Source: Streptomyces vietnamensis (GTDB lineage Bacteria > Actinomycetota > Actinomycetes > Streptomycetales > Streptomycetaceae). From it: a DNA stretch of 64,000 nucleotides. The notes under the pieces were generated by a model. The model saw only the letters and a list, made by a program, of their open reading frames with translations. It made no database searches and had not been told where the DNA came from. The position numbers and the translations under genes are program-made. The stretch is taken from positions 5,274,001 through 5,338,000 of the forward strand of contig NZ_CP010407.1 in NCBI RefSeq assembly GCF_000830005.1, given 5' to 3'. Below, in pieces: positions 40,961 through 48,155 of the stretch. Within the stretch, counting starts at the first letter, position 1. Each line of letters starts with the position of its first letter.

Positions 40961-41842
40961 TTGACTGAGCAGCTGCGACTGATGGCCGTTCACGCCCACC
41001 CCGACGACGAGTCGAGCAAGGGTGCGGCCACGATGGCCAAGTACGTGTCCGAGGGGGTGGACGTCCTGGTCGTGACGTGCACGGGCGGCGAGCGCGGCTC
41101 GGTCCTGAACCCCAAGCTTCAGGGCGACCCCTACATCGAGGCGAACATCCACGAGGTGCGCCGCAAGGAGATGGACGAGGCCCGCGAGATCCTCGGCGTC
41201 TCGCAGGAATGGCTCGGCTTCGTCGACTCGGGCCTGCCCGAGGGCGACCCGCTGCCGCCGCTTCCCGAGGGCTGCTTCGCCCTGGAGGACGTGGACACGG
41301 CGGCCGGGGCCCTGGTCCGCAAGATCCGCTCCTTCCGTCCGCAGGTCGTCACGACCTACGACGAGAACGGCGGGTACCCGCACCCCGACCACATCATGAC
41401 CCACAAGATCACGATGGTGGCCTTCGACGGCGCGGCCGACGCCGAGAAGTACCCGGAGGCCGAGTTCGGCCCGGTCTGGCAGCCGCTGAAGCTGTACTAC
41501 AACCAGGGCTTCAACCGCCCCCGCACCGAGGCCCTGCACGAGGCCCTCCTGGCGCGCGGCCTGGAGTCGCCGTACGGGGACTGGCTGAAGCGCTGGGACG
41601 AGTTCGGCGGCAAGGCGCGCAACCTCACCACGCACGTCCCCTGCGCGGACTTCTTCGAGACCCGCGACAAGGCCCTGATCGCCCACCGCACCCAGATCGA
41701 CCCCGACGGCGGCTGGTTCCGGGTCCCGATGGAGATCCAGAAGGAGGTCTGGCCGACGGAGGAGTACGAGCTCAGCAAGGCGCTGGTCCCCACCTCCCTC
41801 CCCGAGGAAGATCTCTTCGCGGGCATCCGCGACAATGCCTGA
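40961..41842 (+). CDS. mca: Mycothiol S-conjugate amidase
   Basis: The 293-residue zinc amidase of the LmbE/PIG-L family has metal ligands in VHAHPDDESSKG (near residue 11) and YPHPDHIMTH (near 141), plus VTCTGGERGSVLNPKL near 40. It cleaves mycothiol conjugates into an exported mercapturic acid and GlcN-Ins, detoxifying electrophiles. The start is a TTG at 40961 with GAGGA 7-10 nt upstream. The next small membrane-protein gene overlaps its end by 8 bp. Confidence 0.95.
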   Translation: MTEQLRLMAVHAHPDDESSKGAATMAKYVSEGVDVLVVTCTGGERGSVLNPKLQGDPYIEANIHEVRRKEMDEAREILGVSQEWLGFVDSGLPEGDPLPPLPEGCFALEDVDTAAGALVRKIRSFRPQVVTTYDENGGYPHPDHIMTHKITMVAFDGAADAEKYPEAEFGPVWQPLKLYYNQGFNRPRTEALHEALLARGLESPYGDWLKRWDEFGGKARNLTTHVPCADFFETRDKALIAHRTQIDPDGGWFRVPMEIQKEVWPTEEYELSKALVPTSLPEEDLFAGIRDNA

Positions 41843-42479: not shown

Positions 42480-45287
42480 TCAGCCCGCGGCCGGTACGCC
42501 GAGGACCTCCCGGGCCGGGCGGGACGGGACCAGGCCCAGGTCCCAGGCCTGCCAGGGGGCCGCCGGGGCGATGCCCCGGTCCAGGAGCAGCCCGTAGGCC
42601 TCGGCGCAGTCGTCGACCCGCGGGTCGCGGCCCGGGTGCCGCTCCGCGACGAGCGCCGCGAGCTCCTCGCGCGCCGACGCCGCCCCCGGCTCCGGAGTGC
42701 CCGGCGCCGCGTGCGGGAGCAGCCCGCAGCGCAGCAGGCGGGCCCAGTCCGCGCCCCGCCGGTCCCCGTACGCCTCGAAGAGCCCGCGCGCCTCCTCGCA
42801 CAGCGCGAGCGCCTGCGGGACCCGCCCGTTGCCGGCGTCGACGATGGCGAGCTCCAGACCGGCCCAGGCCTCCCCGTGCGCGACCCCGATCCGGCGGAAG
42901 TCCGCCCGCGCGTCCACGAGCAGCTGCCGGGCGAAGCCCGAGTTGCGCAGGTTGCCGGCCCGCGCCCCCTGCTGGTCCCGGGTGACCCGCCCCAGGTGGT
43001 GCCGGGCGCAGGCGAGCCCGTACAGGTCCCGCATCCGCGAGAACATCGACCGCGCCCGCCCCAGCTCCCGTATCGCCGCGTCCCGGTCGCCGCGCTCCTC
43101 CAGGGCCTGCCCCAGGTAGTACAGCGTCCACGCCTCGCCGCGCGCGTCCTCCTGCTCCCGGTGCCGCGCGAGCGCCCCGCGCAGCTCCTCCACCGCAGGC
43201 TCCGCCTCCCCGGCGGCCAGCCGCGCCCGGGCCAGCTGGGTCAGCGCCCAGGCCTCGCCGCGCCCGTCGTGGACGCGGCCGTACGTCTCCAGGGCGCGCC
43301 GCAGCTCACCCTCGGCGCCCGCCGTGTCGCCCCGGAGCAGCAGCACCTGCCCGCGCTGGAAGTGCGCCCAGGCCTCGCCGTGCAGCGACTCGTGCTCCCG
43401 GTGCAGGGCGAGCGAACGATCAAGCAGTGCCGTCGCCTCGGCCAGATCGCCCCGGTCCCGTTCCACGGCGGCGAGCGCGTGCAGCGTCCAGCCCCGGTCG
43501 GCGGCCAGGGACTCCGGCTCCTGGAGTGCGAGCGCCTCCCGAAGGCGTGCCGCGGCCTCCGTGAGCCGTCCCTGGTGGTGCAGGGTGATCCCGAGCGAGC
43601 AGAGCGCGAGCGCAGCGCCCGCGTCCTGGTGGGCCTCCTGGTACTGGGAGACGACCGAGGTCAGCGTCGTGCGGGCCTTGTCGAGCTCGCCGAGCTGCCG
43701 GGCCGCGATACCGGTCCGCCACCGCACCGAGCGCGTGAGGAGACCCTGTCCGACGGACTCGGCCAGCTCGTTGATCTCGCCGAGCCGGTAGAGGTCGCCG
43801 CGCAGCAGGCAGTAGTCGCAGAGCGCGCTGAGCAGGCCGAGCACGGTCTCCTGGTCGACGCCCTCCGCGTGCCGCAGGGCCGCCGTGATGAAGCTGGACT
43901 CCTCGTCGAGCCAGCCGAGCGCCGCCTCCAGGGAGCCGAAGCCGTGCCCGTCGAAGCGGTCGGCGCGGGTCGACATCTTGCCGTCGACCATCCGGATCAC
44001 CGCGTCGGCGAGCTCCGCGTGGTTGCGGATGAGCCGCTCCTGCGCCGCCGCGATCTCGGCCGCGTCCTCCTCGTCGAGGAGCCGTACGGCCGCGAAGCCG
44101 CGCACCACGTCGTGCAGCCGGTACCGCTCCCCGCGCACGTGGTCGAGCAGCCCGGCCCCGGACAGCTCCCGCAGCCGCCGGGCCGCCTCGGGCCCGCTCC
44201 CGCCGAGCAGGGCGGCGGCCGCCGCCGCGCCGAGCGAGGCCCGCCCGGCCAGCGCGAGCCGCCGGAGCAGCTGCCGGGCGTCCTCGTCGAAGTCGAGGAA
44301 GTACCGTACGGACAGGGCGCGTTCGACGGGATCGGTGCCCCAGCCGGGCCGGGCGAGGACATGGCCCACCTCGTCCATGGAGCGGCGCCCGAGCAGGGAG
44401 CCCACGACCCGCAGCGCCAGCGGCAGGCCGCCGCACAGCTCCCGTATCCGCTCGAACGCCTCCGCGTCGTACGGGTCGGGGTCGGGCGCACCGGCCGTCG
44501 CGCGCAGCAACTCCTCGGCACCGGCCGCATCGAGCGCGGCGACGGGCAGGGCGTGCACCTCGGCCGGTACGTCTCCGCCGAGGTCGAGCGGCTCCCGGCA
44601 GGTCACGAGGACGAGGCTGTCGGAACGCTCCGGCAGCAGGGCCCGCACCTGGGCGGCGTCGGCGGCATCGTCGAGGATGAGCACCACGGGCACTCCGCTC
44701 AACTGCCGCTGGTACAACTCCGAGAGCCGCTGCACCTGTTGCCCGGCCGAGGCGCCCTCGCGGAAGAGGAGCCGGTCGCGCGGGGCGCCGAGCCGGTTGA
44801 GGAGGTGCAGCAGCGCGTCCCGGGTCGCGACGGGCCGCTCGGCCCAGCCGGCCTTGCCCGCGCCGGCGACGCCGCCCCGCAGGTCCACCACGCAGGCCCC
44901 GCGGAACTGGTCGCGCAGCGTGTGGGCGGCCCGCACGGCGAGCGCGGTACGGCCGGAGCCGGGCGCGCCGTGCAGCAGCACGACGGTCGGCCGGGTGACG
45001 GCCGAGGCCCGCCCGGCCTGCACCCACCGGGTGATGGACGCCAACTCCTCCCGCCGCCCGGCGAACACCCCACCGGCATCGGGCAGATGCCCGAAGGACC
45101 GCTCGAGCACGGCCCGCTTCCGCGCGGCCGCACTCCGATCACCCCCACGCACCCCCCGCCCCCCGGCCCCGACCCCCGCCGCCGAAACCCCCGCCTCGCC
45201 CCGCTGGGCTCCGACCCCCGAGGCCCCGGCCGCGTCCGCCCGCCCGGGCCCGGCCGCGTCCACCCGCCCGGGCCCGGCCGCGTCCAC
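42480..45287 (-). CDS. STAND protein, NB-ARC plus TPR part (3' portion of a split gene)
   Basis: This frame, open from the G tract onward, encodes about 935 residues. An NB-ARC-type NTPase lies near residues 60-340: Walker A LLHGAPGSGRTALAVRAA, Walker B VVLILDDAADAAQVRALL, the LVTCREPLDL sensor, and GLPLALRVVGSLL. About ten TPR-like repeats follow (residues about 450-900; AWTLYYLGQALEERGD and similar). Such STAND proteins act as signal-gated switches, some as transcription or defence regulators. No DNA-binding domain is in this part. The gene is separated from its natural 5' end by the 22-nt tract at 45340-45361; the 45287 GTG is only the first start in frame and has no good ribosome site. 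Confidence 0.85.
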   Translation of the reverse strand: MDAAGPGRVDAAGPGRADAAGASGVGAQRGEAGVSAAGVGAGGRGVRGGDRSAAARKRAVLERSFGHLPDAGGVFAGRREELASITRWVQAGRASAVTRPTVVLLHGAPGSGRTALAVRAAHTLRDQFRGACVVDLRGGVAGAGKAGWAERPVATRDALLHLLNRLGAPRDRLLFREGASAGQQVQRLSELYQRQLSGVPVVLILDDAADAAQVRALLPERSDSLVLVTCREPLDLGGDVPAEVHALPVAALDAAGAEELLRATAGAPDPDPYDAEAFERIRELCGGLPLALRVVGSLLGRRSMDEVGHVLARPGWGTDPVERALSVRYFLDFDEDARQLLRRLALAGRASLGAAAAAALLGGSGPEAARRLRELSGAGLLDHVRGERYRLHDVVRGFAAVRLLDEEDAAEIAAAQERLIRNHAELADAVIRMVDGKMSTRADRFDGHGFGSLEAALGWLDEESSFITAALRHAEGVDQETVLGLLSALCDYCLLRGDLYRLGEINELAESVGQGLLTRSVRWRTGIAARQLGELDKARTTLTSVVSQYQEAHQDAGAALALCSLGITLHHQGRLTEAAARLREALALQEPESLAADRGWTLHALAAVERDRGDLAEATALLDRSLALHREHESLHGEAWAHFQRGQVLLLRGDTAGAEGELRRALETYGRVHDGRGEAWALTQLARARLAAGEAEPAVEELRGALARHREQEDARGEAWTLYYLGQALEERGDRDAAIRELGRARSMFSRMRDLYGLACARHHLGRVTRDQQGARAGNLRNSGFARQLLVDARADFRRIGVAHGEAWAGLELAIVDAGNGRVPQALALCEEARGLFEAYGDRRGADWARLLRCGLLPHAAPGTPEPGAASAREELAALVAERHPGRDPRVDDCAEAYGLLLDRGIAPAAPWQAWDLGLVPSRPAREVLGVPAAG

Positions 45288-45303
45288 CCGCCCGGGCCCG
45301 GCC

Positions 45304-46023
45304 TCAGCCTCCCCGGCCTCCGCCCGGCCGCCCCCCCCGCCCCCCCCCCCCCCCCCCCCCCGCCGCGCCCACCCCCCGCCTCCGCTCCCGCTCCTCCTCC
45401 AGGAACGGCCGTACCCCCCGGACCTCCAGGGCCGTCAGCCACCCCACCCGGAGCTGCTCGACCCCGTCGGCCCGCTCCGGCGCACCGGCCGCCCCGCGAT
45501 GGTCGGCCGCCCCGCGGTGGCCGGCCGTCGCGCGGAGGACGGTCGCCGCCGCGCCGGCCACGGCGACCGCCGCGCCCGCGCCGAGCGCCGTCCCCGTCGC
45601 CGTACCGAGCGCCAGGTCGGCACCGAAGGCCGCGGCCGCGGCGACACCCGTGACCAGCGCGGGCCCCCCGATCGCCGAGCCGCTGAAACGGTCCGCCAGA
45701 CGCGCCCGCCCGACCCCGGCCCCCGCTCCGGGACCGACCCCGGCTCCGGCATCAGCCCCGGTCGCCCCAGCCCCGCCCCCCGTTCCGCCCGCCGCTCCCG
45801 CCAGGGCCTCCGCCCCCGCCAGCGCCTCCGCCCCCGCCAGCGCCTCCGCCCTCACGTACGCCGCGTACTCCCCGCCCGCCCCCGCCGCCATCGCGTCCAG
45901 CCCCGCCCGGCCCCGTGCAAGGAGCGCGTCCGCCTCGTCCGGGGCGAGGCCGGAGGCCCGTGCCTCCTCCGCCACGGCCCGTTCCAACAGCCGCTCGGCC
46001 TCGGCCCGGTGACTCTCCCGCAT
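45304..46023 (-). pseudogene. 5' portion of the split STAND gene (Ala/Gly-rich membrane-like domain)
   Basis: This frame gives 239 residues from ATG 46023: a helical, charged head ([47 protein letters not shown]), AEALAG repeats, and two hydrophobic segments (GGPALVTGVAAAAAFGADLALG, TALGAGAAVAVAGAAATVL). Then come VGWLTALEVRGVRPFLEEERERRR, the G tract, and a stop 36 bp after it. If the 22-nt tract lost one base (21) or gained two (24), this frame would join the NB-ARC frame into one protein of about 1,180 residues. In this copy it ends early, by true frameshift, phase variation or sequencing error. Confidence 0.75.
45331..45361 (-). repeat. Homopolymer tract: 8 and 22 consecutive C (G on coding strand)
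   Basis: Eight C (45331-45338), one G, then 22 C (45340-45361). The tract is at the exact point where the upstream and downstream frames of the STAND gene diverge. Tracts of this length slip readily in replication and are also error-prone in sequencing. Confidence 0.9.

Positions 46024-46133: not shown

Positions 46134-48155
<2,022 letters not shown>

What the first reader, a model, noticed from the sequence alone, without database searches (positions are those of the whole stretch)
45331..45361. 22-base G tract splits a STAND regulator gene and could switch it on and off
The coding strand has G8-C-G22 exactly where the 5' frame (ATG 46023, membrane-like Ala/Gly domain) and the NB-ARC/TPR frame part. 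With 22 bases the 5' frame stops 36 bp later; with 21 or 24 it would join into one protein of about 1,180 residues. The frame calculation is direct: 5' codons start at positions 0 mod 3, NB-ARC codons at 2 mod 3, and the NB-ARC frame has no stop on either side of the tract. Long homopolymers slip during replication, so this may be a phase-variable contingency locus, unusual in Streptomyces, though a sequencing error is equally possible.
Basis: partly seen in the sequence, partly recalled or inferred. Interest (0 to 1): 0.72.

Follow-up and report, generated by a model that had tools for sequence, protein, structure and literature searches.

The report
Slippage-prone G tract in regulator linker
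A run of 22 Gs interrupts a signalling-ATPase gene of a soil bacterium in a floppy stretch that varies greatly between relatives; it looks like a chance expansion of glycine codons, so the apparent break is more likely a miscount or a passing slip than an evolved on/off switch.

Summary
The tract is in the assembly: on the coding strand G22-C-G8 (45361-45331), inside one gene running from 46023 to 42480. With 22 Gs the 5' frame ends at 45304; tract lengths divisible by three join it to the NB-ARC/TPR frame (about 1,180 codons). Relatives settle the anatomy: the parts lie in one open frame in 101 of 109 relative loci and, as far as the locus reaches, in 5 more; 2 cannot be read and 1 is broken at another place. 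No linker among the 106 readable ones has a G run above 6. The nearest known protein (named S. vietnamensis, 96%) reads AAGG-RAEAG where the window has the tract. The tract is thus a private expansion of Gly codons at the start of a disordered, highly variable linker. Best reading: slippage made it, and the one-base frame break is a consensus miscount or an off-phase state of a normally fused protein. A working phase switch is not excluded: pglX of S. coelicolor is a documented G-tract precedent and NucS repair does not correct indels. But no readable relative shares the tract, and homopolymer indel errors are common in Streptomyces assemblies. Interest modest.

The parts
45331..45361 (-). G22-C-G8 tract (coding strand), the point where the two frames part
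45304..46023 (-). 5' ORF as assembled (239 aa): N-terminal domain of the STAND protein, ending 36 bp past the tract
   Evidence: homologous to the N-terminus of fused relatives
42480..45434 (-). Open frame holding the rest of the linker, NB-ARC NTPase and TPR region (longest listed ORF with a start codon: GTG 45287, 935 aa)
45111..45363 (-). Linker between the N-terminal domain and the NTPase: low-complexity, G-rich, disordered in the model of a fused relative
45225..45303 (-). 24-bp tandem repeat, 3.3 copies (98% match), a multiple of three, directly after the tract
45792..45851 (-). 18-bp tandem repeat, 3.3 copies (95% match), inside the N-terminal part
44946..44969 (-). P-loop GAPGSGRT with Arg in place of the Walker A Lys
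   Evidence: Walker A consensus recalled

Best explanation
One gene for a STAND-type regulator (helical, possibly membrane-linked N-terminal domain; flexible Gly/Ala linker; NB-ARC NTPase; TPR region) of a core Streptomyces locus beside mca. SHOWN: readable relatives encode it in one frame with one exception broken elsewhere; in the nearest protein a plain Gly-Gly stands where the tract is; the linker is highly variable in length and carries in-frame repeats. INFERRED: replication slippage expanded a short run of GGN glycine codons into a long G tract in this lineage, where extra glycines do little harm because the linker is disordered. With no repair of indels by NucS such a tract should be unstable. 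The 22 of the assembly is then a miscount of a length divisible by three, or one off-phase state of a mixed population. The cell probably makes the fused protein at least part of the time, and no evolved switch is needed.
For: Fused frame in 101 of 109 relative loci plus 5 as far as readable; 116 of the 120 listed homologues have at least 1,040 residues and the 4 short ones are named partial by their source. P0002 (96%) reads RRAGAAGG-RAEAGSGRADVAG exactly where the frames part. Longest G run in 106 readable linkers is 6; longest Gly run in 79 measured homologue linkers is 4. Linker 20-221 residues in those 79 of 120; the two best-scoring tandem arrays in the window have periods 24 and 18. Linker disordered in the model of P0002, tract site at its first residues. 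Both halves under purifying selection in the group. NucS does not correct indels (PMC8228993, PMC11109965, passages). Homopolymer indel errors are common in Streptomyces assemblies (PMC4832174, PMC6923854, passages).
Against: No reads were available, so neither the true length nor instability is shown. The named locus nearest by identity (L009, 93%) cannot be read: its contigs break in this linker. The DNA of P0002 was not seen, only its protein. PMC8228993 (passage) also says that polymerase proofreading may suppress almost all short indels in actinobacteria. TRF also lists weaker arrays with periods that are not multiples of three.
Confidence: 0.6

Rival explanations
1. Functional phase-variable locus: slippage at the tract flips the regulator between a fused ON form and a truncated OFF form, giving useful variation between spores or colonies.
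For: Tract at a frame-sensitive place with ON at every third length. G-tract phase variation of pglX in S. coelicolor, 8 to 7 Gs, at 1e-2 to 1e-4 (PMC4365076, passages). NucS does not correct indels.
Against: The tract is private: no readable linker of 106 has a G run above 6. The gene is core and otherwise kept in frame. No phenotype, length variation or expression data.
Confidence: 0.12
2. Real, fixed frameshift: the gene is broken in this strain, or works as two separately translated parts, the second starting at GTG 45287 just after the first stop.
For: The assembled frame stops at 45304 and a GTG at 45287 opens 935 codons. No protein identical to either part appeared in the two homologue lists, which would fit annotation as a broken gene (inference).
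Against: The parts are fused in relatives. I saw no well-placed ribosome-binding site by eye among the candidate starts.
Confidence: 0.13
3. Assembly artefact: the true DNA has no long G tract here, only a shorter G-rich stretch in frame.
For: Long G runs in same-genus assemblies often sit at contig ends or gaps (6 of 13 fetched places, not drawn at random). Relatives' contigs break in this low-complexity part (L009; L084 between its two N-terminal pieces).
Against: The genome is in two contigs, and both its long runs lie inside the chromosome away from ends.
Confidence: 0.1
4. Recoding: RNA polymerase or the ribosome slips on the G run so that part of the product is fused whatever the DNA length.
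For: Slippage on homopolymers is an established way of joining frames (PMC5009743, passages; characteristic sites are A or T runs according to PMC3711429, passages).
Against: No conserved slip site in relatives, where the gene is simply in frame. The passages seen give no bacterial G-run case.
Confidence: 0.05

Closest known systems
pglX of the S. coelicolor phage growth limitation system (G-tract phase variation; PMC4365076, passages)
   Same: G tract inside a Streptomyces gene whose length decides the frame.
   Different: There, switching and a phenotype were observed, with a tract of 7-8 Gs in a methyltransferase gene. Here the tract is 22, the gene is a STAND regulator, and no switching has been seen.
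AfsR (STAND regulator with SARP domain; PDB 8k60, 8jke)
   Same: Nearest solved sequences by phmmer, over the NB-ARC and TPR part; the abstract of PMC10936776 describes NOD and TPR domains that inhibit the effector until ATP binds.
   Different: No SARP part found; far below the AfsR model's cut-off (116.5 against 1430 bits); the N-terminal domain is an unnamed helical domain.
STAND protein with TPRs 6mfv, Apaf-1 and relatives (by fold)
   Same: NTPase plus TPR-like arrangement (Foldseek E 2.4e-15 for 6mfv).
   Different: 15-18% identity; low TM-score over the whole model (0.25-0.27).
RiPP-system TPR proteins HaaT and FxSxx_TPR (NCBIfam)
   Same: NTPase-TPR architecture (175.5 and 43.6 bits).
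   Different: Far below those families' cut-offs (1125 and 300 bits).

Membership tests
Homopolymer phase-variable (contingency) locus | Homopolymer inside the gene whose length decides the frame | tested here: met
Homopolymer phase-variable (contingency) locus | Hypermutable tract kept at this place in relatives (supporting, not strictly defining) | tested here: not met
   longest G run 6 in 106 readable linkers; one relative, L027, has a G8 elsewhere upstream
Homopolymer phase-variable (contingency) locus | Length variation among cells or sister strains | not testable with these tools
   no reads; own and near-identical records are not held in the named collections
Homopolymer phase-variable (contingency) locus | Reversible change of phenotype | not testable with these tools
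   needs experiments
STAND NTPase | NB-ARC/AAA-type NTPase domain above cut-off | tested here: met
   NB-ARC 35.8 bits (cut-off 23.5), AAA_16 35.3 (32.6)
STAND NTPase | Superstructure-forming repeats after the NTPase (TPR) | tested here: met
   TPR_12 80.9 bits (cut-off 30.1)
STAND NTPase | Canonical Walker A lysine (consensus recalled) | tested here: not met
   Arg in the window, in 107 of 107 homologues where the motif was found (13 of 120 not found) and in 106 of 106 loci (3 of 109 not found)
AfsR / SARP-STAND regulator | SARP DNA-binding domain and score above the equivalog cut-off | tested here: not met
   no SARP-type match in P0001 or P0002; 116.5 bits against 1430

The most novel reading that the evidence does not exclude
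A hypermutable G tract has recently turned a core, possibly membrane-linked STAND regulator of a Streptomyces into a high-frequency on/off switch: beside pglX a second kind of G-tract switch in the genus, with colonies continually segregating fused and truncated forms.
Probability: 0.12. Interest if true: 0.6.

Novelty: new member of a known kind. Interest (0 to 1): 0.3.

Why it matters
If it switches, it would extend phase variation in Streptomyces from phage defence to a core regulator and give a simple handle on differences between spores. If not, it is a clear example of how a disordered glycine linker gathers slippage-prone DNA, and of a gene that annotation may wrongly call broken.

Tried and rejected
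Stand-alone N-terminal gene: a homologue search with the 239-aa piece (candidates of 0.55-1.75 times its length, 7,995 scored) found 12 proteins; the 7 whose ends I printed (5 were not) extend into the NTPase-coding part, some then shifting frame, judged by eye. Phage-defence membership: PADLOC gave only weak TPR and mad8 matches. Frame behaviour at the 12 shorter G/C runs (9-12) of the genome: mostly inconclusive; at least two (L145, L152) look in frame inside a gene. N-terminal domain as a membrane hairpin: hydropathy peaks of 1.43 and 1.78 (19-residue windows), but model confidence there is 25-34, so undecided. Papers: searches with Streptomyces plus phase variation and homopolymer; pglX; NucS and indels; slipped-strand mispairing; contingency loci; poly-G, frameshift and homopolymer; AfsR, STAND and NB-ARC showed no title on this gene; most listed papers were not opened. 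PMC8733708, PMC9813960 and PMC6326788 were seen as passages only and carry no argument here.

The nearest protein is named S. vietnamensis; I recall contig sizes like these (8,867,142 and 286,635 bp) for strain GIMV4.0001, unverified.

Full report
What is there. The coding strand (minus) holds G22 (45361-45340), one C, and G8 (45338-45331). The 5' ORF starts at ATG 46023 and, as assembled, stops at 45304 (239 aa). The NB-ARC/TPR frame is open from 45434 to 42480. Tract lengths 18, 21, 24 and 27 give one frame of 1,179-1,182 codons; the other seven lengths from 18 to 28 do not. The finding's frame arithmetic is right; only its order of the two runs on the coding strand is reversed.

How unusual the tract is. 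The genome (9,153,777 bases, 2 contigs) holds seven G/C runs of exactly 9, two of 10, one of 11 and two of 12, none of 13 to 21, then this 22 and one of 27. A first-order random model built from the linker without the tract gives a run of 22 or more in 23 of 20,000 trials. In the genus such runs are not rare in assemblies: 192 of 392 sampled genomes, own included, have a run of 16 or more. But 6 of 13 places that I fetched from the listing (not at random) lie beside contig ends or gaps, so assembly edges inflate that count.

What the gene is. The 3' part matches NB-ARC (35.8 bits, cut-off 23.5) and several TPR families; the 5' part matches nothing in Pfam or NCBIfam at E up to 0.1. The only two solved sequences found by phmmer are AfsR entries. 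The best folds are a STAND protein with TPRs (6mfv), TPR proteins such as LGN, and Apaf-1. It is not AfsR: no SARP part was found and it scores 116.5 bits against that model's 1430. The neighbours are a divergent DUF255 thioredoxin-domain gene starting at 46134 and mca, mycothiol conjugate amidase, at 40961-41842. Of 109 relative loci, 100 hold mca and 74 hold DUF255; many loci are cut short. DUF255 lies on the opposite strand in all 62 named loci where it is found. So this is a core chromosomal orthologue.

Relatives decide the anatomy. The named scan kept the best 80 of 247 relatives. Of the 109 others, 101 have both N-terminal test pieces and the NTPase in one open frame. In 5 the second piece and the NTPase share a frame but the locus lacks the first piece. 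In 2 neither piece is on the locus (L009, L117). In 1 (L044) the frame is broken just before the NTPase, without a G tract. Two pairs are identical over the NTPase piece, leaving 107 distinct. Of the 120 homologues listed from 2,255, 116 have at least 1,040 residues and the 4 short ones are named partial by their source. The parts are therefore one protein.

One relative cannot be read. The named locus nearest by identity, L009 (93%), starts inside the gene after the linker, and the contig with its N-terminal part ends before the linker. What lies between is not assembled, so a long tract there is neither shown nor excluded.

The tract is a new expansion of glycine codons. The closest protein (P0002, named S. 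vietnamensis, 96% identical, 1,159 aa) reads RRAGAAGG-RAEAGSGRADVAG. The window reads RRRGVGAAG and then Gly codons in the 5' frame, and Gly codons and then RAEAGEAEAGPGRVDAAG in the NB-ARC frame. The frames part exactly at the Gly-Gly. No readable linker of 106 has a G run above 6; one relative (L027) has a G8 elsewhere upstream. No measured homologue linker has more than 4 Gly in a row. The linker is 20 to 221 residues long in the 79 of 120 homologues where flanking motifs were found (41 were not measured), with visible peptide repeats in several close relatives. In the window the two best-scoring tandem arrays have periods 24 and 18; weaker rows have other periods, several not multiples of three. 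In a model of P0002 residues 205-281 have pLDDT below 50, and the tract site is residues 205-206. That model is mediocre overall (mean pLDDT 68.4, pTM 0.48), so I use only the contrast between helix 169-205 and the linker.

Selection. dN/dS is 0.22-0.37 for the NTPase piece and 0.32-0.58 for the second N-terminal piece against six relatives, and 0.30-0.72 for the first N-terminal piece against five. This does not date the frameshift, but the fused protein has been maintained in the group.

How it most likely works. Slippage at a GGN-rich glycine stretch made the tract (inferred). Streptomyces lack MutSL, and the alternative NucS repair does not correct indels (PMC8228993, passages including its abstract). 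In S. ambofaciens loss of NucS did not considerably change the indel rate (PMC11109965, passages). Against this, the same review says that polymerase proofreading may suppress almost all short indels. In S. coelicolor a tract of 8 Gs in pglX is held responsible for switching at 1e-2 to 1e-4 (PMC4365076, passages). A tract of 22 should then be unstable (inference). At the same time homopolymer errors are common in Streptomyces assemblies: 205 indels corrected in one genome, nearly all in G or C runs (PMC4832174, passage), and 70, 295 and 335 SNPs or indels in three others, mostly single-base insertions in homopolymers (PMC6923854, passages). A consensus length of 22 therefore says little about whether the cell's gene is in frame.

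Is it a switch? It has the anatomy of one but not the history: the tract is private as far as can be read, the gene is core, and the linker also grows by in-frame repeats. I give a functional switch 0.12. Reads from single colonies would settle it.

A side result. The Walker A lysine is replaced by arginine (GAPGSGRT, 44969-44946). The same holds in every homologue where the motif was located: 107 of 120 proteins and 106 of 109 loci, the rest not located. Nucleotide handling in this family may be unusual (inference).

Noticed in passing
44946-44969 (minus strand): P-loop reads GAPGSGRT: Arg replaces the usual Walker A Lys, and does so in all 107 homologues and 106 loci where the motif was located (13 of 120 and 3 of 109 not located). 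A STAND-like family with a changed P-loop would merit an ATPase test.
   Followed up: partly
L119:4602-4628 (own genome, C1:777601-777627): G27, the longest G run of the genome. It lies between genes, a short way upstream of a minus-strand ORF that looks by eye like a polyketide synthase, beside imperfect G-rich repeats. A spacing effect on expression is conceivable.
   Followed up: partly
L044, about 2000-2060 (Streptomyces sp. P3): Another orthologue with a broken frame, just before the NTPase domain and not at a G tract; error or real is unknown.
   Followed up: no
L009 and L123 (Streptomyces sp. NK15101): The gene is split over two contigs, one ending before and one starting after the linker; long reads of this strain would show whether it also has a G tract.
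   Followed up: partly
L131-L143 (same-genus genomes): G/C runs of 17-61 bases occur in other Streptomyces assemblies; 6 of these 13 places are at contig ends or N gaps, the rest inside contigs.
   Followed up: partly
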